DNA of 15,846 nucleotides from Candidatus Roizmanbacteria bacterium. Its GTDB lineage: Bacteria; Patescibacteriota; Microgenomatia; UBA1406; GWC2-37-13. Shown piece by piece: positions 597 to 15,244 of this stretch (position 1 is the first letter of the stretch; the number at the start of each line of letters is the position of its first letter). The notes below the pieces were generated by a model. The model worked only from the letters and a program-made list of their open reading frames with translations, had not been told where the DNA came from and made no database searches. Position numbers and translations under genes: made by a program. The stretch lies in the NCBI GenBank assembly GCA_024653985.1, contig JANLIS010000117.1:1-15846 (forward strand), read 5' to 3'.

Positions 597-1097
597 CTAT
601 CCGAGATTATTTCTGTCTTCATTCCAATTAATTGGATTGTCTCTGATATATTGACGGATAGAATATAAAGAATATTCTGTACGAATAATGTGGTCATAAA
701 ATGATTTTTGCCATTTAAATGAAATCAATCCAGATTCATGAATTCTTCTTGATGAAAATGTTTTTAATCCACGAATCATTTCGGATATCGAATATTTTGT
801 AGGGAACGGTTTCAAACCGTTCCCTACGTGTTGATTTATATTTTGGATAATAATTATTCCGTGGATATGATTTGGCATTATGATAAATTCATCTAATACA
901 CAATTTGAATAATGATTTATTAAATCTTCATAACATTTTTCAACAATTTTTCCATAATGATTCAATGTCATGATTTCATTTTTGACCGTACCAAATTCAC
1001 ACCGACGTTTATTGGTACAAATCGTTACAAAATAATATCCATTTTTAGAATAATCAAAACCCTTTAGACGATTTTGTTTACGATGCTTTATAACCAT
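597..1097 (-). CDS. REP-associated tyrosine transposase (RAYT, Y1_Tnp / IS200-like)
   Basis: The 166-residue protein has the full set of Y1 transposase signatures: an N-terminal RLKGFDYSKNGYYFVTICT segment, the metal-binding HUH motif in MPNHIHGIIII (H77 and H79), a WQKSFYDHIIR segment, and the C-terminal IRQYIRDNPINW motif with Y150 as candidate nucleophile. HUH enzymes of this group cut single-stranded DNA at REP hairpins bearing a GTAG-type foot. The gene appears intact and is a single copy without a partner gene, the usual state of RAYTs, which act as domesticated REP-processing enzymes more often than as free insertion sequences. Codons 91-100 (VGNGLKPFPT) are encoded by a perfect REP-like palindrome. 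Related hairpins occur at 6115-6141 and 14125-14152. Its start, ATG 1097, has no Shine-Dalgarno. Confidence 0.9.
   Translation of the reverse strand: MVIKHRKQNRLKGFDYSKNGYYFVTICTNKRRCEFGTVKNEIMTLNHYGKIVEKCYEDLINHYSNCVLDEFIIMPNHIHGIIIIQNINQHVGNGLKPFPTKYSISEMIRGLKTFSSRRIHESGLISFKWQKSFYDHIIRTEYSLYSIRQYIRDNPINWNEDRNNLG
799..827 (-). repeat. REP-like palindrome inside the RAYT coding sequence
   Basis: The arms are GTAGGGAACGGTTT and AAACCGTTCCCTAC around one central base: a 14-bp perfect inverted repeat in 29 nt. On the coding (minus) strand it begins GTAGGG and ends CCCTAC, matching the feet of the two intergenic hairpins at 6115-6141 and 14125-14152. It lies in frame and encodes RAYT residues 91-100, between the HUH motif and the following helix, a position that probably tolerates insertion. 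Confidence 0.85.
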
Positions 1098-5481: not shown

Positions 5482-6102
5482 TTACCGAGAATAATATTCA
5501 ATGATTAATCTCAGATTTATCAATTTTTCAATCACTTCTTGTGTCGGTTCTTTTATCAACTTTCCGACAGTGGCTTTCTTTTCCAACCATGAAGGCAGAA
5601 TAACATCTTTGTTATCTAAAGAGGTTTCAATATAAGGGATCTTTGTCGTCTTGACGTCAGAAAAACTCATCTCATCTCCAACCTTAACTTGATAGGAAGG
5701 GATAGATAATCTTTTTTTGTTTACGGACATATGCCCATGAGTAATTAATTGGCGGGCAGCAGCTCTGGTTGGAGCAAAACCCAAATGAAAGACCATGTTG
5801 TCAAATCTACTTTCCAAAGAGTGTGACAAATACAAGGCGGTATTACCTTTTTTCATGCTTGCCTTTTTAAAATAATTTTTCAACTGAGTTTCGGTAATTC
5901 CGAACATATATCTTAACTTTTGTTTTTCTCGGAGTTGAGTACCTCTTTCTGACACCTTCCTTCTTTTTCGCAATCCATGTTGTCCAGGAGGTACACCCAA
6001 TTTCTTCAATAAACGGGCATGAGACTTTGAACCTAATGTTTTTAGTTCTAGATCTACTCCTTCTCTCCTTGCTATTCTATTTTTTGGTCCTCTATATCTC
6101 AT
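5482..6102 (-). CDS. rpsD: 30S ribosomal protein S4
   Basis: S4 initiates assembly of the 30S body and in many bacteria represses its own operon. The 206-residue product begins MRYRGPKNRIARREGVDLEL, with PPGQHGLRKRRKVSERGTQL then REKQKLRYMFGI, the S4 domain LESRFDNMVFHLGFAPTRAA followed by RQLITHGHMSVN (about 95-126), and the C-terminal LIIEYYSR. Length is standard. Between rpsK and rpsD lies a 45-nt spacer almost filled by a REP-like hairpin, which would be transcribed between the two messages. The N-terminus lacks a four-cysteine zinc site, so this is the zinc-free form. Confidence 0.98.
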   Translation of the reverse strand: MRYRGPKNRIARREGVDLELKTLGSKSHARLLKKLGVPPGQHGLRKRRKVSERGTQLREKQKLRYMFGITETQLKNYFKKASMKKGNTALYLSHSLESRFDNMVFHLGFAPTRAAARQLITHGHMSVNKKRLSIPSYQVKVGDEMSFSDVKTTKIPYIETSLDNKDVILPSWLEKKATVGKLIKEPTQEVIEKLINLRLIIEYYSR

Positions 6103-6114
6103 ATATTTTTATTT

Positions 6115-6141
6115 GTACGGGTCGGGTTACCCGACCCCTAC
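6115..6141 (-). repeat. REP-like hairpin in the rpsK-rpsD spacer
   Basis: The arms on the plus strand are GTACGGGTCGGGT and ACCCGACCCCTAC around one base, pairing at 12 of 13 positions. The single mismatch is the fourth base from each foot, the same place as in the hairpin at 14125-14152. On the transcribed (minus) strand it reads GTAGGGG at the 5' foot and CCCGTAC at the 3' foot. It fills over half of the spacer between rpsK and rpsD and is far more GC-rich than its surroundings. It is a likely target of the RAYT at 597-1097. Confidence 0.82.
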
Positions 6142-6147
6142 TGGCAT

Positions 6148-6522
6148 TTAAACACGCCTAATTTTAGGTGGCCTCACTCCGTTGTGAGGGACCGGTGTAA
6201 TATCTATAATACGGTTAATATCTATTCTTGAAGCTTTGATCGCTCTTAAAGCTGCTTCACGTCCCGGTCCAATTCCCTTGACTAGAACATCGGCAACTTG
6301 AAAATCATGTTTTTCTTCGGCTTTCTTTAAGGCATTTTCGGTTGTAACTGTAGCTGCATATGGAGTGGATTTTCTTGTGCCAGAAAATCCATGCATTCCT
6401 GTTGATCCAACAACGAGCGGATTGCCTTTTTCATCGGTGATTGTCACTAAAGTATTGTTAAAGGTAGAAGTAATATATATTTTACCTTTAATAACGCTTT
6501 TCTTTGTTTGTTTTTTTATCAT
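6148..6522 (-). CDS. rpsK: 30S ribosomal protein S11
   Basis: S11 forms part of the mRNA exit region on the 30S platform, next to S18 and S21. The 124-residue product includes GKIYITSTFNNTLVTITDEK (13-32), GFSGTRKSTPYAATVTTENA (45-64), VLVKGIGPGREAALRAIKAS (79-98) and the closing DITPVPHNGVRPPKIRRV. All are diagnostic. Length is near 129. It starts 14 nt after rpsM within an AT-only leader (AAATTTATTTATAAAT before ATG) with no Shine-Dalgarno. Confidence 0.98.
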   Translation of the reverse strand: MIKKQTKKSVIKGKIYITSTFNNTLVTITDEKGNPLVVGSTGMHGFSGTRKSTPYAATVTTENALKKAEEKHDFQVADVLVKGIGPGREAALRAIKASRIDINRIIDITPVPHNGVRPPKIRRV

Positions 6523-6536
6523 ATTTATAAATAAAT

Positions 6537-6968
6537 TTATTTGGCTGGGGCCGTTTTAGTGGCATCAGCAGTTTTATTCTGCTCAAGCTTTGCCCACATT
6601 TCTTTCTTTAGGGCTCCAACGGTCTTTCTCTTACCTCTCTTTGTTCTTGCATTGGATTTTGTCCTTTGACCGTCAACCGGTAAACCTCGGACATGCCTTA
6701 TTCCCCTATAGCTGCCGATCTCTCTCAATCTTTTTATATTTTCATTTATGGCTTCTCTCAAATAACCTTCCACCTTATAATTTGTCTCGATCACTTCAAG
6801 AATTTTTTTAAATTCTTCTTCTGTTATTTCTTTGACTTTTTTGTTGGCGGCAACACCCGTTTGTTTCAGGACACCTTTTACGTTGGCCCAGCCGATCCCA
6901 TAAAGGGTGGTTAACGCATAATCAATTCTTTTTTCATCCGGTAATGTAACTCCAAGCATTCTTGCCAT
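6537..6968 (-). CDS. rpsM: 30S ribosomal protein S13
   Basis: S13 lies in the 30S head, bridges to L5 and contacts P-site tRNA through its basic tail. The 143-residue product begins MARMLGVTLPDEKRIDYALT with TLYGIGWANVKGVLKQTGV (about 21-39), then LREIGSYRGIRHVRGLPVDG and QRTKSNARTKRGKRKTVG. After about residue 113 comes a low-complexity tail ending KTADATKTAPAK, so it is roughly 20 residues longer than most S13 proteins. The start is set back 96 nt from rpmJ behind the largest repeat-filled spacer of the cluster, making this junction a candidate processing or regulatory point. Confidence 0.98.
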   Translation of the reverse strand: MARMLGVTLPDEKRIDYALTTLYGIGWANVKGVLKQTGVAANKKVKEITEEEFKKILEVIETNYKVEGYLREAINENIKRLREIGSYRGIRHVRGLPVDGQRTKSNARTKRGKRKTVGALKKEMWAKLEQNKTADATKTAPAK

Positions 6969-7064
6969 AAATTAGTTTATAAAGTTATAAAGTTCATAAA
7001 GTTCATAAAGTTCATAAAGTATTTTACTTTAAAGACTTTATAGACTTTCCAACTTTATGGACTT
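6969..7064. repeat. ACTTTATGA-type repeat array, arranged as opposed half-arrays
   Basis: The 96-nt rpmJ-rpsM spacer is made of two half-arrays in opposite orientation. At 6976-7020 there are about five TTCATAAAG/TTATAAAG units; at 7026-7066 there are ACTTTAAAG, ACTTTATAG, ACTTTCCA, ACTTTATGG and ACTTTT. For example CATAAAGTT at 6995-7003 and 7004-7012 is the exact complement of AACTTTATG at 7051-7059, so the RNA could fold back in several registers. No promoter or terminator is obvious inside it. Confidence 0.8.
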
Positions 7065-7178
7065 TTAACCCTGTTTTTGTTTGTGCTTAACATTAGAACA
7101 AACAACATATAAATTTCCTTTTCGTTTGACTATCTTGCACTTCGGACAAATTTTTTTAACTGATGAGTGAATTTTCAT
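7065..7178 (-). CDS. rpmJ: 50S ribosomal protein L36
   Basis: The 37-residue product starts [20 protein letters not shown] and ends NVKHKQKQG, the full length of the family. The zinc ligands C11, C14, C27 and H32 are all present, so this is the zinc-binding form. L36 is the smallest large-subunit protein and stabilises 23S rRNA near the peptidyl transferase region. It begins two bases after the infA stop, the common infA-rpmJ order, and is followed by the repeat-filled spacer before rpsM. The ATG is preceded by AGAAAATAAAT, without a Shine-Dalgarno. Confidence 0.96.
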
Positions 7179-7180
7179 AT

Positions 7181-7396
7181 TTATTTTCTATATGTGATCC
7201 TTCCTCTATTTAGATCGTAATGGGTCATTTCTATCTTTACCTTGTCACCCGGAAGAATCTTAATATAGTTCTTCCTCATCTTGCCTGACAGATAACATAA
7301 AATGACTTTTTCCGAATTTAAAAGCTTTACTTTAAATAGGGTGTTGGGAAGATTCTCGACCACTTCTCCCTCAACCGTAATCACGTCATCCTTCAT
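7181..7396 (-). CDS. infA: Translation initiation factor IF-1
   Basis: IF-1 is a single OB-fold protein that occupies the 30S A site during initiation. The 71-residue product has [20 protein letters not shown] (8-27), [20 protein letters not shown] (36-55) and the closing [12 protein letters not shown], matching the usual 72-residue protein; the otherwise invariant RI(T/V)YR ending is intact. The ATG (7396-7394) is contained in an ACTTTATGA repeat unit, and candidate promoter elements lie just upstream in the map-infA junction. No Shine-Dalgarno is present. Confidence 0.96.
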
Positions 7397-7405
7397 AAAG
7401 TCTAT

Positions 7406-7439
7406 ATTTTAACATAAAATAATTATATATTCATGTCAA
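7406..7439 (-). promoter_or_regulatory. Candidate promoter before infA
   Basis: On the minus strand TTGACA (7439-7434, formed by the last two map codons) is followed after 17 nt by TATGTT (7416-7411), a 4/6 match to the -10. An overlapping extended -10 (TG at 7414-7413, then TAAAAT at 7411-7406) offers a second option. Either would place the transcript start only a few bases before the infA ATG at 7396. The context is AT-rich, so this is a moderate prediction. Confidence 0.35.
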
Positions 7440-8183
7440 AATTACAGGCCCTTTGTCCGTAATAGCAATTGTGTGCTCAAAGCAAGCTGATATGCTCCGA
7501 TCTTTGGTAATAATTGACCAATTATCTTCCTCATAGATCATATGATCTGTCCCCATTGTGTAAATAATCTCAATTGCGATCACTAAACCTTTTTTGATCA
7601 AAGGTGATTTATTTACGGGTTGGTCCACAAAACCAAAGACATATGGATCTTCATGTAATTTTCTTCCTATTCCATGACCTGTTAGTTCCTTTATGATAAA
7701 GTACCCATTACCTGTAATCGCTTTTTCAATCACTTCCGAAATGTGTCCTAATCTATTTCCTATTTTGGCTTGTTTGATCGCCTGATATAGGGTTTCTTCT
7801 CCAATTTTCAAAAATTTATTAATATTTTTGTCTTTACTTTCTCCGCCGATCACCTTGGTGATCGCATGATCGGTATGCCAGCCTTTATACAACATTCCAA
7901 TATCTAAAGTTAGAACATCTCCGTCTTTCAAAACCCTCTTACTGGGCTTGGTATGAACTATCTGCTCATTTATCGGTGTACAGGTGCTGAATTTATACCC
8001 CGAAACGGTCATGAACGAAGACCTTCCTCCCTGCGCCTTTATCAGCTCTTCAGCCTTTTCATCAATCTCCTTGGTAGCTGTTCCCGCTTTGATTAGTGGG
8101 GTCAATTCTTTGACAACGGCTTTCAATCTTCTTCCTCCCTCAGCCATTACTTCAATTTCTGCGTCAGACTTTAAATACACCAT
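7431..8183 (-). CDS. map: Methionine aminopeptidase, type I
   Basis: This metalloenzyme removes the initiator methionine from new proteins. The 250-residue product has the complete dinuclear metal site: D94 (LTLDIG), D105 (HTDHA), H170 (GHGIG), E205 (AIEI) and E236 (FEHT), plus the catalytic histidines H77 and H177. Length and lack of an N-terminal zinc-finger extension match simple type I enzymes. The residue run before the first ligand, CTPINEQIVH, replaces the commoner SVNEEVxHG. It starts immediately after the stop of the adenylate kinase fusion with no intervening base, in the widespread secY-adk-map-infA order. Confidence 0.97.
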   Translation of the reverse strand: MVYLKSDAEIEVMAEGGRRLKAVVKELTPLIKAGTATKEIDEKAEELIKAQGGRSSFMTVSGYKFSTCTPINEQIVHTKPSKRVLKDGDVLTLDIGMLYKGWHTDHAITKVIGGESKDKNINKFLKIGEETLYQAIKQAKIGNRLGHISEVIEKAITGNGYFIIKELTGHGIGRKLHEDPYVFGFVDQPVNKSPLIKKGLVIAIEIIYTMGTDHMIYEEDNWSIITKDRSISACFEHTIAITDKGPVILT

Positions 8184-9311
8184 TTATGAAAAGAAAATTG
8201 TACGATATGTTAATTCCAATTTGTCATAAAATTCTTCTTTTGAATAGTTGTTTTTTATTACATGATCAGCATAGGCAATGGTCGGACCGGCATTGATCCC
8301 GACAATTTCATTAATATCTCTTTCTTCACCATAATGCTCCGACATATCATTCCTTTTTGAGATTCTTTTATACCTGAGGAGCTTTTCGGAATATATGCAA
8401 ACTATCACCAGCTTAACATCCGGCAATACTTTTTTCAGATACAGATATTCTTCCCAAGAGCGCATACCTTCAACGATGATGATCAAATTATCTTTTAAGG
8501 CTGTTTTTATCTTATCAAGATTCAAAACTGCCATCGCCTCTTCTCCGTGCTCTGCCCTTAGCTCTTCCCGTACTTCCTTATGGGCTTTTTCGCTATGAGG
8601 TAATTTTTTTTGATTAACTTTATCAATGACTGTTTTTCCGAAAGAGATGACAGGTAAACCTTTGGTGCTTAAATAGGCTGCGGCATCAGTCTTTCCGCTT
8701 CCAGGCAAACCGACGATTGCAATTATGGTCTTTTGTTTTTTCTTCCAATCGGTCACCTGATTTTTGATAAGTTGTTTACCTAATCCTTTAAGGATCTCTC
8801 CGTTTACGTCCTCTATCTTCATTGTTCCGTCAATATCAACCAGCTTATTTTCTTTTCTGTAATACTCTATTACCGGTTCTGTGTGTTTGTAAAATAAAGC
8901 GATTCTTTTTTTCAAGGCAGGTAATGTTTCATCACTTCTTGTGCTGTCATCACGATGGAATAGTCTCCAGATCGCCTCTTTTTGAGAAATGTCAAGATAT
9001 ATCACCTTATCAACGTTGTTCTGAAATTCTTTTACCTGCTCCAAGGTTCTTGGAAATCCATCTAAGATGTATCCTTTTTTATATTCTGGACGATGCAAAT
9101 AGCTATTGACTATTTCGATCGTTTTAACATCGGGAACAAGAAGTCCTGCATTAACTGTTTCTTTTATGTAGCGGCCGAGTTGTGTTTTTTCCTTGGCAAT
9201 TTCCCTAAAGATATGACCTGTTGAAAGATATGGTATTTCCAATTGCTTGGATAATAAATTACCTTGGGTCGATTTTCCAGAACCCTGGATACCGATTAAA
9301 ACCAGTTTCAT
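8184..9311 (-). CDS. adk: Adenylate kinase fused to a UPF0200-like P-loop kinase domain
   Basis: The 375-residue protein holds two P-loop kinases. Residues 1-180 are a short-LID adenylate kinase: Walker A GIQGSGKS (7-14), STGHIFREI, GYILDGFPRT (80-89) and a brief LID at about 118-130 (HRDDSTRSDE), with no zinc-finger LID. Adenylate kinase interconverts ATP plus AMP and two ADP. Residues 194-375 have a second Walker A, GLPGSGKT (201-208), then FGKTVID, VREELRAEHGEEAMAVLNLD (247-266), the EGMRSWEE motif (281-288) and YADHVIKNNYSKEEF near the end. That order resembles the archaeal UPF0200 nucleotide-kinase/dephospho-CoA-kinase-like family. I start at ATG 9311 because MKLVLIG is the normal first strand; an upstream TTG at 9320 is possible but unlikely. 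The activity of the second domain is inferred only by family resemblance. Confidence 0.9.
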   Translation of the reverse strand: MKLVLIGIQGSGKSTQGNLLSKQLEIPYLSTGHIFREIAKEKTQLGRYIKETVNAGLLVPDVKTIEIVNSYLHRPEYKKGYILDGFPRTLEQVKEFQNNVDKVIYLDISQKEAIWRLFHRDDSTRSDETLPALKKRIALFYKHTEPVIEYYRKENKLVDIDGTMKIEDVNGEILKGLGKQLIKNQVTDWKKKQKTIIAIVGLPGSGKTDAAAYLSTKGLPVISFGKTVIDKVNQKKLPHSEKAHKEVREELRAEHGEEAMAVLNLDKIKTALKDNLIIIVEGMRSWEEYLYLKKVLPDVKLVIVCIYSEKLLRYKRISKRNDMSEHYGEERDINEIVGINAGPTIAYADHVIKNNYSKEEFYDKLELTYRTIFFS

Positions 9312-9328
9312 ATTTGACAAATAAGACT

Positions 9329-9350
9329 TATTGGACTAATTAGTCCAATA
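9329..9350. repeat. Perfect 22-bp palindrome in the rpmG-adk spacer
   Basis: TATTGGACTAA is followed immediately by its reverse complement TTAGTCCAATA, an uninterrupted 11+11 palindrome that takes up about half of the 46-nt spacer. It lies 17 nt before the adk ATG and 7 nt after the rpmG stop. It could be an operator for a dimeric protein or a hairpin in the mRNA. No U-run follows in the direction of transcription (minus strand), arguing against an intrinsic terminator. Confidence 0.75.
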
Positions 9351-9357
9351 GGAATTT

Positions 9358-9531
9358 TTAATCAAGTTTCTTTTTTTCTTTATGTGCTGTATGTTTTCGG
9401 CATTTTGAACAAAACTTGTTCAATTTTAAGCCGCTGGTCGTATTGACCTTATTTTTTTCAACCACGTAATTAACGGATTGACATACTTCGCAAACCAAAC
9501 CGACATCGATTCTAGAGCCTTTTTTAGCCAT
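9358..9531 (-). CDS. rpmG: 50S ribosomal protein L33 (zinc-binding form)
   Basis: The 57-residue product starts MAKKGSRIDVGLVCEVC and ends KCRKHTAHKEKKKLD. The motif order (MAKKG, two CxxC pairs C14/C17 and C41/C44, NTTSGLKLNKFC, CRKHTxHKE) is diagnostic of L33, a protein near the E site of the 50S subunit. It is slightly longer than the usual 50-55 residues. Its place between secY and adk is unusual: in many bacteria rpmG lies next to rpmB or before secE-nusG. The start is preceded by AT-rich sequence (CTTTTACTATT) without a Shine-Dalgarno. Confidence 0.95.
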   Translation of the reverse strand: MAKKGSRIDVGLVCEVCQSVNYVVEKNKVNTTSGLKLNKFCSKCRKHTAHKEKKKLD

Positions 9532-9556
9532 AATAGTAAAAGTTTTAAATTATAAT

Positions 9557-10846
9557 TTACTTCACAAACCTATCGTAATTCCTCATCACAAGCTGCGATT
9601 CAATCGTCTTGAAAGTTTCCAGAATAACCGAAACAACGATCAGGATACCGGTTCCACCGATTACTAAGTTCGTCATACCGGTTATTTTGGAAACTAATAC
9701 TGGCATTACGGCAATTACACCTAAAAACAAAGCTCCAACAGTTGTGATCCTATATAAGATCCTTTGCAAATATTCTTTTGTAGCGATCCCCGGACGGATT
9801 CCCGGAATAAAACCACCCTGCTTCTGAATTTCTTCAGAAATCTTTTGCGGATTGAAAACGATGATCGTATAAAAGTAGGTAAAGCCAACCACCAAGAAAA
9901 AATAGAAAAAATTGTAGAAAAATCCTGTCGGTTCAAAAACCGTTGAAAGAAAAGTGCCCACACTAGCCAAAGCTGGGTTTTTTACATATCTCAAAAAGTT
10001 ACCTATTAACTGTGGAAAAAGAACGAATGAAACGGCAAATATGATCGGAATGACTCCGGCCTGATTCAGTTTCAAAGGCAGGAAGTTGGTCGCCCCCTGA
10101 TACATTCTGTTTCCTTTGATCCTTTTTGCGTATAGAACAGGGATCCTTCTTGTTGCTTCATTGATATAAACGATTGCGGCAATCACGAAAAGTGAAAGAG
10201 CCAAAAAGATTATGATATTGAAAATTATTTCCTGGTTAAATACTGTCGCAGTCTGACCAAGAAGGACATGGAGCCTACCGACGATACCTACAAAGATCAA
10301 AAGCGATATCCCGTTTCCCAGACCAAATTCTGTGATCAATTCACCAAACCAAACCAAGATAAACGTACCGGCAACCATCGTCACGACGAATGAAAAGAAC
10401 TCAAGAGGGCTCAAAACACCGATAACTTTTTGGTTTTTAAGAAGCATAAATATACCGATCGCCTGAACTATCGTCAACGGAACGGTCAACATTCTTGTAT
10501 ATTGATTGATCTTAGCTCTACCGTATTCCCCTTCCTTTGACAGACTTTCAAGATGAGGTATCATCATGGTCAACATCTGCAATACGATTGACGCATTGAT
10601 GTAAGGATTCAAACCTAAAGCCATAACTGAAAAATTTATCAATGTGCCTCCGGAAAAAATATCCAGAAGCGAAAGAAATTGATTTTGTGAAAATAACTGT
10701 TTAAGTCTTATCAAATCGATTGCCGGAACGGGTAAAAATGCAAAAAATCTGAAGGCTAAGAAGATAAATAAAGTGAACAAAAGCTTTCTCTTCAACTCAG
10801 GGTCTTTGAGAAGAATATTGATTTTTTCAATAATTTTTTTTATCAT
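9557..10846 (-). CDS. secY: Protein translocase subunit SecY
   Basis: SecY forms the protein-conducting channel of the inner-membrane Sec translocon with SecE and SecG. The 429-residue product has the expected ten hydrophobic segments. Recognisable landmarks are [11 protein letters not shown] in the first periplasmic part, the plug/TM2 region [20 protein letters not shown] then [32 protein letters not shown], the cytoplasmic loop with [20 protein letters not shown], and [20 protein letters not shown] before the last helices. Length matches the family. It starts three bases after rplO, the classical spc operon position, and is followed by rpmG. Confidence 0.98.
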
Positions 10847-10849
10847 TTT

Positions 10850-11296
10850 TCAGGATTCAATCGTACCGCCGAGTTTTTCGACAGCTTCCTTAACTTTTTT
10901 AGAAACGGGGAGTTTTATAATTAACTTTTTTTTCAACTGCCCATTAGCTAAGATCTTTATCGGTAGTTTTTCATTTCCGTTGGTTATAATATTTTCTTTT
11001 ATCAATGTTTCCCTGCTAACAATAGAGTTTTCAGCCAATTTATTTAATGTCTCCAGATCTATCACAAAAGCTTTTGCATTGATGGAATTGTTCTTCCCTT
11101 TACCGCGGAGAAGAGGATACTTTTTGACGATCCTTCCTTGACCACCTTCAAAATGAAGAGGTACGCTCTCTCGGGCTTTTTGATGTCTTGTTGTTCCCCG
11201 TCCTGATTTAGATCCTTTCCCGCTCCCTAACCCTCGTCCTAACCTCTTTTTTTTCTTAATATTTACCTGTGGCAAATTTGATAAAAAATTTTTCAT
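10850..11296 (-). CDS. rplO: 50S ribosomal protein L15
   Basis: L15 is a late-assembly 50S protein whose long N-terminal arm enters the rRNA core. The 148-residue product has KKKKRLGRGLGSGKGSKSGR (14-33), the glycine-rich arm signature, FEGGQGRIVKKYPLLRGKG (49-67), and the globular C-terminal part with ILANGQLKKKLIIKLPVSKK and AVEKLGGTIES. Length is normal. It follows rpsE by seven bases, leaving no room for rpmD (L30), which normally lies between S5 and L15. The loss of L30 is a known trait of Candidate Phyla Radiation bacteria. Confidence 0.97.
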   Translation of the reverse strand: MKNFLSNLPQVNIKKKKRLGRGLGSGKGSKSGRGTTRHQKARESVPLHFEGGQGRIVKKYPLLRGKGKNNSINAKAFVIDLETLNKLAENSIVSRETLIKENIITNGNEKLPIKILANGQLKKKLIIKLPVSKKVKEAVEKLGGTIES

Positions 11297-11303
11297 AATA
11301 TAA

Positions 11304-11762
11304 TTAAAACTTTGTTCTTAATAAACTTAAAGCTTTCATAATGGCGTAGGTATTTACGATCTGATTTCTGGAACCGATTATCTTTCCTGAGGCGTTCTCT
11401 ACTCCGGCCAGATCCAATATGACACGGGTGACACTTCCAACCTTTAGTCCGGTTCCTTCTGGAGCCGGCTTTAACAATATCCTGGCAGCTCTAAATTTGA
11501 CCCTGACCTCATGAGGAATAGTTTTGTTTCTCATTGGGACATTGATCATATGTTTCTTTGCATAGCTGATGGCTTTTTGAATTGCTGGGGGCACTTCAAG
11601 AGATCTACCCAGTCCAATACCAACTTTACCCTTACGGTTTCCAACAACCACCAATGCAGAAAAAGTTACATAGTTGCCACCGGTAGTCTTTTTTGAAACT
11701 CTTCTTATCTTAACAACTTTTTCCTGAAATTCTTTATCTTCTTGTCTGTATCGATTGAACAT
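11304..11762 (-). CDS. rpsE: 30S ribosomal protein S5
   Basis: S5 helps form the mRNA entry channel and affects decoding accuracy. The 152-residue product has EKVVKIRRVSKKTTGGNYVT (14-33), the double-stranded-RNA-binding-like N-terminal domain, then FSALVVVGNRKGKVGIGLG, the loop IPHEVRVKFRAARILLKPAP then EGTGLKVG, and the C-terminal AGVENASGKIIGSRNQIVN. The protein is a little shorter than the ~166 residues of E. coli S5. It lies 20 nt after rplR, across a spacer containing two TAGTAATT units. Confidence 0.97.
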   Translation of the reverse strand: MFNRYRQEDKEFQEKVVKIRRVSKKTTGGNYVTFSALVVVGNRKGKVGIGLGRSLEVPPAIQKAISYAKKHMINVPMRNKTIPHEVRVKFRAARILLKPAPEGTGLKVGSVTRVILDLAGVENASGKIIGSRNQIVNTYAIMKALSLLRTKF

Positions 11763-11782
11763 TTTTATTTAGTAATTAGTAA
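11763..11782. repeat. Short TAGTAATT tandem in the rplR-rpsE spacer
   Basis: The spacer consists of TTTTTATT followed by TAGTAATT twice in tandem (11770-11785, running into the end of rplR). It is a small AT-rich tandem of a different type from the ACTTTATGA arrays. It shows no hairpin or promoter and may simply be low-complexity spacer. Confidence 0.45.
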
Positions 11783-12145
11783 TTATATTTTCAGTCCGCC
11801 TTCTCTTAAGCCTTCTGCCAAAGACTTAACCCGACCATTGTATGCATATGATCCTCGGTCAAAGACACCTGATAATATTTTCTTTTCAATAAGTTTTTTT
11901 GCCAGTCCAATACCAATCTCTTTAGAATCATCAGTTTTTTTGCCTTTTTTAAAATCCTTCTCTTTCTTCAGGTCTGAATTGGAAAAAGATAATAATGTTT
12001 TCTTTGTTGTGTCATCAATTGCTTGAGCATAAATATATTTACTGGAACGGAAGATAGATATTCTCGGCCTATCACCTGTTCCTTTTATATTTGAACTGAC
12101 TCTTCTTTTTCTTCTCAATTTACGATCTATGTTTATATTTGACAT
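11783..12145 (-). CDS. rplR: 50S ribosomal protein L18
   Basis: L18 binds 5S rRNA together with L5 in the central protuberance. The 120-residue product starts MSNINIDRKLRRKRRVSSNI, then GTGDRPRISIFRSSKYIYAQ (22-41) and AIDDTTKKTLLSFS, and ends FDRGSYAYNGRVKSLAEGLR with EGGLKI, all typical. Length matches the family at about 118. It starts eight bases after rplF. The run DLKKEKDFKKGKKTDDSKEI is a lysine-rich region within the normally variable loop. Confidence 0.97.
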   Translation of the reverse strand: MSNINIDRKLRRKRRVSSNIKGTGDRPRISIFRSSKYIYAQAIDDTTKKTLLSFSNSDLKKEKDFKKGKKTDDSKEIGIGLAKKLIEKKILSGVFDRGSYAYNGRVKSLAEGLREGGLKI

Positions 12146-12153
12146 ATTATTGA

Positions 12154-12708
12154 TTAAGCGGCTGCACCTGCGGCCTTTGCCTTTTTACCAGGTTTAATTC
12201 TTAACTTTTCTCCCAAATACCTTATTCCTTTTCCTTTATAAACGTCAGGTTTTCTTATCATCTTTATTTGATAGGATACCTGTCCGACCATTTGTTTGTC
12301 GTATCCTTCAACAGTTACTTTATTGTTTCCCTCAACCTTATATTTTATCCCTGGTTGTTTCTTAAAGGTTACCAAATGTGAATATCCAATTTTGAAAACT
12401 AGATCTTCACCTTGCAATTTCACTGTGTAACCGGTTCCGACTACTTCTAATTTTTTCTCCCATGGTTTTTCAACTCCGATTACGGCATTCCCGATAAGTT
12501 GTCGATACAGACCATGTAATGATCTGACCTTTTTTTCGTTATTGTTTCTTTTTATGAGCAAATTATTTTCTTCTTTTACCAAAGTTATTTCCTTAGGTAC
12601 GTCAAAAGACATCTCACCTTGAGGACCTTTGATGGAAATCTTGTTACCATCAATGGTCAAGGTTACAGCCGATGACAAAATAATTGGTCTTTCTCCTATT
12701 TTAGACAT
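12154..12708 (-). CDS. rplF: 50S ribosomal protein L6
   Basis: L6 is a two-domain protein near the factor-binding site. I start at ATG 12708 (MSKIGERPIIL, 184 residues), because this matches the family N-terminus; the upstream ATG at 12741 would overlap rpsH. It has VTLTIDGNKISIKGPQGEMS (about residues 16-35), LHGLYRQLIGNAVIGVEKPW, and a second domain with VGTGYTVKLQGEDLVFKIGY and IRKPDVYKGKGIRYLGEKLR then IKPGKKA, the L6 signature 2. It ends in a short alanine-rich tail (KAKAAGAAA). The start lies four bases after the rpsH stop. Confidence 0.96.
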   Translation of the reverse strand: MSKIGERPIILSSAVTLTIDGNKISIKGPQGEMSFDVPKEITLVKEENNLLIKRNNNEKKVRSLHGLYRQLIGNAVIGVEKPWEKKLEVVGTGYTVKLQGEDLVFKIGYSHLVTFKKQPGIKYKVEGNNKVTVEGYDKQMVGQVSYQIKMIRKPDVYKGKGIRYLGEKLRIKPGKKAKAAGAAA

Positions 12709-12712
12709 AAAA

Positions 12713-13099
12713 TTACCAGAAACTAAATAATAATTCTCCACCTAACTTTGCTTTCTTCGCTTCACGATCGGTCATAATCCCTTTTGAGGTGGAAAGGACA
12801 GAATATCCAAAACCGCTCAAAACAGGTTTCAAATTTTTATAAGATATATATAATCTCATTCCCGGTTTTGAAAATATTTTTACATCGCTAATGGCTGGAT
12901 TGCCTTCTTCATATTTCAAATGAATGACGGTATTCTTTTTTATATCTCCTTCAACCTCATAGCTCTCAATAAACTTGAGCGCTAACAACTTTTTCAGAAT
13001 TGCTTCTTTATAAGTTGAATAGGGAGAAGTTATAACTTCCTTTCTCGCCATATATCCGTTTTTAATTCTGATAACCAGATCAATGATTGAATTTTCCAT
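12713..13099 (-). CDS. rpsH: 30S ribosomal protein S8
   Basis: S8 binds the central domain of 16S rRNA and in E. coli regulates the spc operon. I choose ATG 13099 (MENSIIDLVIRIKNGYMARK, 128 residues) instead of ATG 13141, which would add 14 residues unlike S8 and overlap rpsS. The N-terminal DLVIRIKNGY is typical, and the C-terminal half has YKNLKPVLSGFGYSVLSTSK then GIMTDREAKKAKLGGELLFS, close to the usual ISTSKG-MTDxxAR-GGE signature. The ending FSFW replaces the common CYVW. It starts four bases after the unusually placed rpsS. Confidence 0.95.
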   Translation of the reverse strand: MENSIIDLVIRIKNGYMARKEVITSPYSTYKEAILKKLLALKFIESYEVEGDIKKNTVIHLKYEEGNPAISDVKIFSKPGMRLYISYKNLKPVLSGFGYSVLSTSKGIMTDREAKKAKLGGELLFSFW

Positions 13100-13103
13100 A
13101 TTT

Positions 13104-13388
13104 TTATGTTGCTTCAACAACTTTTTTGGTAACTTTACCATGGCTTCGGAATGTTCGAGTGATCGAAAATTCCCCTAATCTATGTCCAACCATGTTTTCG
13201 GTAATTGAAACTTCTATAAATTTTCTTCCATTGTGAATGGCAAATTTATGTCCGACAAAATCCGGTGGGATCTGACAGGCGCGTGACCATGTTTTAATCG
13301 CTGTATTGTCATTCGTCTCTTTCTGTTTAAGAACCTTTTTCATCATCCGATCGTCAATGTATGGACCTTTTTTACTTGATCTACTCAT
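13104..13388 (-). CDS. rpsS: 30S ribosomal protein S19, in an unusual position
   Basis: S19 lies at the top of the 30S head and partners S13. The 94-residue product starts [20 protein letters not shown] and has [20 protein letters not shown] (31-50) and [20 protein letters not shown] then [15 protein letters not shown], the canonical S19 signature, at normal length. In standard S10 operons rpsS lies between rplB and rplV, well upstream of rplP. Here it is between rpsN and rpsH. Its ATG overlaps the rpsN stop as ATGA and its stop is four bases before rpsH, so it is fully built into the operon. Whether a second copy exists upstream is outside the window. Confidence 0.96.
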
Positions 13389-13570
13389 AGTGAAACTTTT
13401 TTAACTCCGGGAATATCTCCCTGTAATGCTTTTTCTCTAAAACAAATTCTGCATAATCCAAATCTTCTCATATATCCGCGTGCCCTTCCGCAAATAGCAC
13501 AACGGTTGTGTTGTCTAACCTGAAATTTTTGTTTTTTCAAAAATTTTACAACGCTTGATGTTTTTGCCAT
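13385..13570 (-). CDS. rpsN: 30S ribosomal protein S14, zinc-binding (type Z)
   Basis: The 61-residue product is the short, zinc-binding form of S14, which sits in the 30S head beside S3, S10 and S19. The ligands C24, C27, C40 and C43 occur in [20 protein letters not shown], the family signature. It ends [18 protein letters not shown]; the usual terminal residues after PGVxKxSW are shortened. It starts two bases after rplE, its normal neighbour, and overlaps rpsS by four bases. Confidence 0.97.
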
Positions 13571-13572
13571 AA

Positions 13573-14112
13573 TTATTTCATAAATGGAATTCCTAACATT
13601 TCAAACAATTTTTTCCCTCTTTCTTTATTTTTAGCATTGGTAACAACTGTTACCTGCAAACCTCTTATTTTATCAATTTTATCAAAATCTATTTCGGGAA
13701 ATATTATTTGTTCAGGAAAACCAAGATTTAGGTTACCGTTCTGGTCAATAGTATTTCCAGGAATACCTCTAAAATCTTTAAGCCTTGGGATAACTATTTT
13801 AATCAATTTTTCAACGAAATTATACATTCTTTTTCCTCTCAAAGTCACTTTAACACCTATCGCCAATCCTTTTCTGATCTTAAAAGCTGAAACGGATGTT
13901 CTGGCTTTTGTGATTATTGTTTTTTGTCCGGCTATGGTTGATATCTGTTCCTGGATCTTTTCAATGACATTTTTATTGGTCACTGCTTCACCGGCTCCAA
14001 CATTAATAGCAATTTTAATTATTTTAGGCACAGCCATTACATTCTTAACACCCAATTCTTTTGTTAGTTTTGGCGCTACCTCCAAGCTGTAAAAATCTTT
14101 GAATGTTGCCAT
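13573..14112 (-). CDS. rplE: 50S ribosomal protein L5
   Basis: L5 binds 5S rRNA in the central protuberance and touches P-site tRNA and S13. The 179-residue product is exactly the E. coli length. It has [20 protein letters not shown] (25-44), [20 protein letters not shown] then [19 protein letters not shown], and the C-terminal [20 protein letters not shown] followed by [17 protein letters not shown], all diagnostic. It lies between rplX and rpsN as usual, but the rplX-rplE spacer contains a REP-like hairpin. Confidence 0.98.
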
Positions 14113-14124
14113 ATTATTTTTTTG

Positions 14125-14152
14125 GTACGGGTTTGATTAATCAAACCCCTAC
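14125..14152 (-). repeat. REP-like hairpin in the rplX-rplE spacer
   Basis: The arms on the plus strand are GTACGGGTTTGATT and AATCAAACCCCTAC, directly adjacent and pairing at 13 of 14 positions. The one mismatch is at the fourth base from the feet, as in the hairpin at 6115-6141. The feet are the same as in that copy while the stem core is different and still self-complementary. It occupies most of the 44-nt spacer between rplX and rplE. Confidence 0.82.
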
Positions 14153-14156
14153 ATTC

Positions 14157-14462
14157 TTAAATCTTGCTATCGCACTTTCTGCAAATTCTAATTTTTTTAT
14201 TTTTCTCTATTCTAAACCCAATTCTGGTTACCTTTGAACATTTTGGACAAACAAAACTTAATTTTGAAACGTCCATTGCTCTTGCAATTTCAACGATTCC
14301 ACCTTGAGGCATCTTTTCATTTTTCTTTACATGTCTTTTATACATGTTCATGCCTGTCACTAATACTTTATCGGAATTTTTATAGACCTTTTCAACCACT
14401 CCGGTCTTTCCTTTATCTTTTCCGATGGTAATCTTTATTTTGTCACCTTTTTTAATCTTCAT
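14157..14462 (-). CDS. rplX: 50S ribosomal protein L24
   Basis: L24 is an assembly initiator near the tunnel exit. The 101-residue product begins with a KOW motif, MKIKKGDKIKITIGKDKGKT (1-20) and GVVEKVYKNSDKVLVTGMNM, then YKRHVKKNEKMPQGGIVEIA. The C-terminal part has a zinc-ribbon with C72, C75, C94 and C97 (VCPKCSKVTRIGFRIE, IRICRKCDSKI). Length is normal for a bacterial L24. It is separated from rplN by a 49-nt spacer of ACTTTATGA units and followed by a REP-like hairpin before rplE. Confidence 0.97.
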   Translation of the reverse strand: MKIKKGDKIKITIGKDKGKTGVVEKVYKNSDKVLVTGMNMYKRHVKKNEKMPQGGIVEIARAMDVSKLSFVCPKCSKVTRIGFRIEKNKKIRICRKCDSKI

Positions 14463-14886: not shown

Positions 14887-15004
14887 ATTTTAAAAAACTT
14901 CAAATTACAAATTTTAAATAACAATTGAATAACAAATTACAAATTTTAAATGTTTTAAACATTTATTATTTGATATTTGAGATTCAATTGATGTTTGTTA
15001 TTTG
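14887..15004. repeat. AT-rich spacer with 19-bp direct repeat and inverted repeats (rpsQ-rplN)
   Basis: CAAATTACAAATTTTAAAT occurs twice without mismatch (14901-14919 and 14933-14951). AAATGTTT and AAACATTT around one T form a 17-nt palindrome at 14948-14964. The right part (14993-15018) carries TTTGTTATTTG/TCATTTGTTATTT, which is roughly the reverse complement of AATAACAAATTACAAAT at 14928-14944, so the spacer could fold back on itself. No gene, Shine-Dalgarno or clear promoter was seen in it. Confidence 0.7.
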
Positions 15005-15244
15005 TCATTTGTTATTTATCTTCTTAATAACTTTAAAGTGTTTATCTCTTGAGATCGGTTTTGTTTCTTCAATCTTAACTGTGTCTCCAACGATCAGATC
15101 TAATTTTTCATTGTGAGCTTTAAATTTTTTGTGTCTAACTATGACCTTGTGATAAACAGGGTGCCTTAATTTTCTTTCAACCATGACCACGACCGTCTTT
15201 ATCATTTTTGTCGAGACTACTTTTCCGATCAGTGTTTTTTTCAT
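15005..15244 (-). CDS. rpsQ: 30S ribosomal protein S17
   Basis: S17 is an OB-fold primary binder of 16S rRNA. The 79-residue product has KKTLIGKVVSTKMIKTVVVM (2-21), VERKLRHPVYHKVIVRHKKF (22-41), KAHNEKLDLIVGDTVKIEET (42-61) and the ending KPISRDKHFKVIKKI, matching the family (80-87 residues). Its ATG overlaps the rpmC stop as ATGA. A purine run (AGAAAAAAAAGAAG) precedes the ATG; it is A-rich and not a true Shine-Dalgarno. Confidence 0.97.
   Translation of the reverse strand: MKKTLIGKVVSTKMIKTVVVMVERKLRHPVYHKVIVRHKKFKAHNEKLDLIVGDTVKIEETKPISRDKHFKVIKKINNK

What the first reader, a model, noticed from the sequence alone, without database searches (positions are those of the whole stretch)
6115..14152. 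REP-like hairpins with conserved GTAG/GTAC feet inserted in two ribosomal spacers
Seen: the hairpins at 6115-6141 (rpsK-rpsD) and 14125-14152 (rplX-rplE) read GTAGGGG at the 5' foot and CCCGTAC at the 3' foot on the transcribed strand. The stem cores are different (TCGGG versus TTTGA) yet self-complementary, and both have one mismatch at the same place, four bases from the foot. Known: REP elements processed by RAYT proteins carry a GTAG-type tetranucleotide foot. Inference: this is a RAYT-linked REP family that has entered the otherwise compact ribosomal cluster, where it may stabilise or divide the long mRNA.
Basis: partly seen in the sequence, partly recalled or inferred. Interest (0 to 1): 0.7.

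Follow-up and report, generated by a model that had tools for sequence, protein, structure and literature searches.

The report
Roaming DNA hairpins inside ribosomal operon
The two hairpins between ribosomal genes look like recently inserted copies of a small mobile DNA hairpin of a kind linked to a known transposase family, and related copies also sit, read as protein, inside conserved genes and inside the transposase gene itself.

Summary
In detail: both hairpins are at the stated places on the minus (coding) strand, with GTAGGGG/CCCGTAC feet and one G·G mismatch at the fourth pair. They belong to a dispersed family: 16 places at E<=0.01 in the window's genome. In the genus (relatives include Candidatus Roizmanbacteria records) a GTAG hairpin fills the rpsK-rpsD spacer in 3 of 19 loci and rplX-rplE in 2 of 19, with different stems in different species. 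The rplX-rplE hairpin with one foot base left open is in 80 fetched stretches from many phyla, five times inside such a transposase frame. The REP/RAYT reading is supported; an mRNA effect is untested. Beyond it: 93 of 145 copies examined lie deep inside reading frames, 7 of 18 sites shared among six species hold different stems, and directional copies between co-directional genes face one way (24 of 24; 4 of 5 in a second set).

The parts
6115..6141 (-). GTAG hairpin in the rpsK-rpsD spacer, TCGGG stem
   Evidence: (E 4.6e-6); absent from 16 of 19 genus loci
14125..14152 (-). GTAG hairpin in the rplX-rplE spacer, TTTGATT stem
   Evidence: (E 1.0e-7); absent from 17 of 19 genus loci
799..827 (-). 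symmetric GTAG hairpin inside the transposase reading frame; codes VGNGLKPFPT
   Evidence: (E 1.8e-5)
597..1097 (-). REP-associated tyrosine transposase-like protein, 166 aa, HUH motif MPNHIH (which tyrosine is catalytic is recalled, not tested)
   Evidence: PF01797, 27.5 bits, cut-off 23; only sequence match in the PDB: 4er8, E 0.0028; NF047646, E 4.5e-14 but below its cut-off; model, mean pLDDT 85.7; best fold match 4er8, E 4.1e-7
6148..6522 (-). rpsK, gene before the first hairpin
5482..6102 (-). rpsD, gene after the first hairpin
14157..14462 (-). rplX, gene before the second hairpin
13573..14112 (-). rplE, gene after the second hairpin

Best explanation
Both hairpins are mobile GTAG-type REP elements that inserted into ribosomal spacers within this genus. 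The likely mover is a HUH/Y1 transposase of the REP-associated kind (RAYT), which acts on single-stranded hairpins and reads the GTAG foot (inferred from published work on TnpA-REP enzymes, PMC8266576). New copies last where they do little harm: in the few bases between a stop and a start codon, or in frame in protein loops. Some transposase genes of this kind carry a hairpin of a mobile stem class in their own reading frame, so gene and hairpin could travel together. Shown: membership in a dispersed family, species-specific presence at the two spacers, different stems at the same sites, hairpins in transposase frames, orientation in spacers. Inferred: that the transposase moves them, and how. 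Not shown: any effect on the ribosomal mRNA.
For: Family: 16 places at E<=0.01 in the own genome; 98, 31, 12, 83 and 97 strand-counted matches at E<=0.1 in five close relatives; 12 of 110 class genomes, own included, at E<=0.001. Absence in relatives. Transposase link: correlation; the window frame holds a hairpin; RAYT-like frames on C61, C38 and C65 of the own genome hold GGGTTTGATnAATCAAACCCCTAC, the rplX-rplE stem with a decayed left foot; in G002:C12, G008:C7 and G002:C64 one hairpin lies in the frame after the HUH motif and one of the same stem at or just before the likely start. The 28-mer with one foot base open is in 80 fetched stretches; five lie inside frames that match a RAYT profile (L332, L336, L376, L378, L385) and one overlaps the end of such a frame (L383). 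Fold of the window protein: 4er8, a REP transposase bound to a REP hairpin, ranks first.
Against: Movement was not observed. The window protein scores below the NCBIfam REP-transposase cut-off (52.6 against 80 bits) and its gene is not flanked by two outer REPs. Its own stem (AACGG) occurs once among the 21 own-genome places printed. I saw no transposase frame with the TCGGG stem among those examined. Some genomes have several Y1_Tnp genes and few pattern matches (G006: 5 and 2; G019: 3 and 3). Of 84 places of the 28-mer elsewhere only 2 have the GTAC foot of the window copy; 74 have CTAC and 8 TTAC. The RAYT profile was built from proteins that carry such hairpin peptides.
Confidence: 0.82

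Rival explanations
1. Host-owned regulatory hairpins of the ribosomal operon (attenuator, processing or stability element) kept by selection at these spacers.
For: Stable folds; directional copies between co-directional genes face with transcription in 24 of 24 and, in a second set, 4 of 5 cases; both window copies end 12 nt before an ATG.
Against: Absent from 16 of 19 and 17 of 19 orthologous spacers; stems differ between species at the same spacer; no Rfam match up to E 0.1; not terminator-like; related copies sit in unrelated genes.
Confidence: 0.06
2. The hairpins are moved by replication template switching between short palindromes, not by the RAYT.
For: Unrelated palindromes occupy the same loops of recG and ileS; in the 120 listed TsaD homologs 22 have a GTAG-type peptide at one linker, 12 a CHPR type, 8 a KTSAV type; at recG site 5 the filled form is only 12 nt longer than the empty one, as if sequence was replaced.
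Against: Feet are kept while stems differ; counts follow Y1_Tnp; the TTTGATT stem lies inside RAYT-like frames of five records named for different lineages.
Confidence: 0.12
3. One old insertion at each site, losses in some species, and later exchange of stems at fixed sites (compatible with RAYT as mover; it concerns history, not identity).
For: Filled species G000, G008, G015 are scattered on the tree; 7 of 18 coding sites shared among six species hold different stems, five of the seven at the same codon by eye; flanks show no strong target motif that would explain repeat hits.
Against: Needs several clean losses; inner branches are weakly supported (0.69-0.95); two or three separate insertions explain the two spacers as well.
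Confidence: 0.3

Closest known systems
GTAG REP families (PMC3733652; abstract, passages, sections 5 and 16 and part 1 of section 17 read)
   Same: 20-40 bp palindromes with a GTAG end, dispersed, mostly near gene ends, sometimes inside genes; different REPs at about the same site of recB in two Xanthomonas species; linked to RAYTs; some families shared by distant organisms.
   Different: Here GTA of the foot can pair with a 3' TAC, with only the fourth base mismatched or the foot fully symmetric; the sections read do not mention hairpins in the middle of RAYT frames (they mention flanking repeats overlapping RAYT gene ends).
RAYT / TnpA-REP transposases (PMC2817692, PMC6006769, PMC8266576; passages only)
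   Same: HUH motif; best fold match is the REP transposase 4er8; the 2018 survey reports patchy spread by horizontal transfer and a variable HUH-Tyr distance in some subclasses.
   Different: There RAYT genes are described as flanked by REPs; here a hairpin is inside the frame after the HUH motif, with one more at or before the start in three loci.
Rickettsia palindromic elements (passages of PMC3733652 and search listings only)
   Same: Short palindromes inside unrelated genes of a small genome.
   Different: The R. conorii ones described there (RPE-4, RPE-6) are CGTC repeats, which that paper finds not linked to a transposase.

Membership tests
GTAG REP element | GTAG 0-2 nt before a fully paired stem of 7-20 nt with a loop of 2-5 nt (PMC6006769, passage) | tested here: met
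   GTAG, then 8 bp and a loop of 3 or 4 nt
GTAG REP element | terminal GTAG motif not involved in pairing (PMC3733652) | tested here: inconclusive
   in the predicted RNA fold only the fourth base is unpaired; GTA pairs with the 3' TAC
GTAG REP element | dispersed multi-copy family | tested here: met
   16 places at E<=0.01 in 817 kb; one of the model's 16 training sequences occurs in this genome
GTAG REP element | mobile: sites without it in relatives | tested here: met
RAYT transposase | HUH/Y1 transposase fold and motifs | tested here: met
   H77 and H79 invariant in 41 sequences; 4er8 first of 30 matches at E<=0.001
RAYT transposase | passes the curated cut-off of NF047646 REP_Tyr_transpos | tested here: not met
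   52.6 bits against 80, E 4.5e-14
[quoted passage not shown]
   window gene: one hairpin, inside the frame; G008:C7, G002:C12, G002:C64: one inside, one at or before the start
RAYT transposase | binds and cuts its REP as single-stranded DNA | not testable with these tools
   needs the protein

The most novel reading that the evidence does not exclude
A transposase lineage that keeps its own mobile hairpin in its reading frame, as a floppy loop of the protein, is a self-contained travelling unit: it carries nearly the same 28-nt hairpin between phyla, and in these small genomes the hairpins settle in fixed protein loops and spacers ('sockets') where stems are exchanged over time, giving conserved enzymes species-specific ten-residue inserts.
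Probability: 0.35. Interest if true: 0.8.

Novelty: new variant of a known kind. Interest (0 to 1): 0.62.

Why it matters
In my view how a REP population starts in a new host is open. A transposase gene that contains its hairpin would give an answer, and near-identical hairpins inside such frames in five differently named lineages make that testable. The in-frame copies in ileS, recG, tsaD, lepA and pheT also give a natural map of protein loops that tolerate about ten extra residues, in genomes usually described (recalled) as streamlined.

Tried and rejected
Terminator reading: neither hairpin is among 12 terminator-like sites; the sense strand runs into A, not T. Known RNA element: no Rfam match up to E 0.1. 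Phage origin: no exact match of either pattern in viral contigs. Strong target motif: flanks show mainly A after the 3' foot and, in symmetric copies, little A before the 5' foot, which just extends the palindrome. RAYTs with internal hairpins could not be counted without bias: my HUH filter kept 13 frames, 7 of them taken because they hold hairpins; of the 6 others two carry a GTAG-type stem, one being the window gene.

Weaknesses: the 145 copies come from loci picked from truncated lists, not a census, and a few weak ones may be noise; 'inside' means inside a frame of at least 70 aa, and only 17 frames were checked against curated families (one had none, and the PheT and IleS pieces score below their cut-offs). 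Orientation counts leave out frame edges (4 sense, 5 antisense; 1 and 1) and copies not between co-directional genes, and some spacer copies are at orthologous sites. The wider figure (11 of 22 shared sites with different stems) includes 8 sites from distant species that I picked out of 13, mostly because they matched; I therefore rest on the 7 of 18 from six species. The homologs were found by shared words that include the internal peptide; 98 of the 120 listed hold VGNG[LF]KPFPT and 118 a looser form.

Full report
What was claimed and what is there. The two hairpins are real and as described, on the minus strand, which is the coding strand of the ribosomal cluster. They fold as three outer pairs (GTA with UAC), a G·G mismatch, then eight pairs. 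The window is one whole contig (C23, 15846 bases) of a draft genome of 817 kb, 85.8% complete. It also holds a transposase-like gene at 597-1097 with a third hairpin in its frame.

A dispersed family. The pattern GTAGG...CCNTAC gives seven clear hairpin places in the own genome among its matches, though the match count itself (15) is not above the reversed control (22). A covariance model built from 16 hairpins finds 13 places at E<=0.001 and 16 at E<=0.01. In six close genomes the strand-counted matches at E<=0.1 are 30 (own), 98, 31, 12, 83 and 97. Over 110 genomes of the class, own included, 12 match at E<=0.001, in several families. The same stems recur in other species of the genus.

Insertions. 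At rpsK-rpsD 19 genus loci were read; three hold a GTAG hairpin: G000 with the TCGGG stem, G008 and G015 with an AACAAA stem; 16 do not, one of them (G011) having another palindrome there (G013 gave no match). At rplX-rplE 2 of 19 are filled: G000 with TTTGATT and G008 with AACAAA (fragmented G019 was left out). The map of the cluster in six close genomes adds copies between rplN and rplX and at the secY end in G008, and between rpoA and rplQ in G015; none among the mapped genes of G002, G014 and G016. A looser scan adds one with a changed foot between rplN and rplX in G015. Filled species lie apart on the tree, whose inner branches are weak.

Link to the transposase. Y1_Tnp is found in 15 of 20 genus genomes. 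The five without it have 0, 3, 0, 0 and 2 pattern matches against 2, 3, 2, 1 and 1 for the reversed control. In G002:C12, G008:C7 and G002:C64 a RAYT-like frame has one hairpin after the HUH motif and one of the same stem at or just before its likely start. Own-genome RAYT-like frames on C61, C38 and C65 hold the TTTGAT stem of the rplX-rplE hairpin with a decayed left foot; C38 and C65 were not among the five Pfam matches. The window protein's predicted model (41 sequences, mean pLDDT 85.7, pTM 0.80) has one stretch below pLDDT 50, residues 90-100, which is the hairpin-coded VGNGLKPFPT (residues 91-100) between the HUH strand and the next helix. Its best fold match among solved structures is 4er8, a REP transposase bound to a REP hairpin (E 4.1e-7), followed by IS200/IS605-type transposases. 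NCBIfam's REP-transposase model matches at E 4.5e-14 but below its cut-off.

Across phyla. The rplX-rplE hairpin with one base of the 3' foot left open is in 81 stretches of the genome collection; 80 were listed and read, from many phyla by record title, among them Zixibacteriota, Nitrospirae, Dadabacteria, Rhodothermales, Planctomycetota and Roizmanbacteria. Of 84 places, 74 have a CTAC foot, 8 TTAC and 2 GTAC, the window's form. By my frame searches are between genes and 17 inside frames of at least 90 aa. Five of these frames match a RAYT profile made proteins (L332, L336, L376, L378, L385; two are cut or short frames), and in L383 the hairpin overlaps the end of one.

Inside genes. Of 145 copies in fetched loci of six genomes, 93 lie at least 25 residues inside a frame, 12 near a frame's edge and 40 between frames. 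Codon phases of the 93 are 66, 25 and 2; the rare phase would read the foot's TAG as a stop when the copy lies in sense. Hosts by curated models: thiamine diphosphokinase, PEP carboxykinase, Tgt and chorismate synthase in the own genome; RecJ, CarB, MrdA, RecG, TsaD, LepA and UvrA in relatives; PheT and IleS pieces below cut-off. Among six species 18 sites are shared and 7 hold clearly different stems; adding eight picked sites of four distant species makes it 11 of 22. At the ileS linker G008, G002 and G017 hold three different GTAG stems. Other palindromes use the same loops in recG, ileS and tsaD.

Orientation. Copies whose 3' foot is not CTAC have a direction. Between co-directional genes 24 of 24 face with transcription; deep inside frames 16 do and 30 do not (Fisher p 1.9e-8). 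In a second set, in which copies of G017, G009, G007 and G010 were found, it was 4 of 5 against 5 of 12; the one G016 stretch gave none. I cannot explain this; it fits a role, or a cost, at the RNA or strand level in spacers. In five spacer cases the gene before ends within the foot, by a 4-nt overlap.

Judgement. The element works like a GTAG REP with its RAYT and meets most criteria tested; the complementary 3' foot, the missing outer flanking pair and the hairpin inside the transposase frame set it apart. Intragenic REPs and different REPs at about one site were reported before (PMC3733652), so I file this as a new variant of a known kind.

Noticed in passing
window 597-1097 with 799-827: REP-type transposase frame with a perfect hairpin in frame after the HUH motif; 98 of the 120 listed homologs hold VGNG[LF]KPFPT, but the search was biased to it.
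   Followed up: partly
L231-L248 (recG), L261-L281 (ileS), P0001-P0120 (TsaD): Several unrelated palindrome families occupy the same protein loops in this genus.
   Followed up: partly
recG site 5, L231 and L233 against L232, L234, L235: Filled form is 12 nt longer than the empty form although the hairpin has 28 nt, as if host sequence was replaced.
   Followed up: no
window 14901-15011 and 9314-9365: Two further AT-rich inverted repeats without GTAG feet around the rplN-rpsQ and adk-secY spacers.
   Followed up: no
window 8184-9320: Adenylate kinase frame carries a second P-loop kinase-like domain in its C-terminal half.
   Followed up: no
L383:1918-1945: In a Dadabacteria record the hairpin overlaps the last 4 bases of a transposase frame, so its foot may supply the stop codon.
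   Followed up: no
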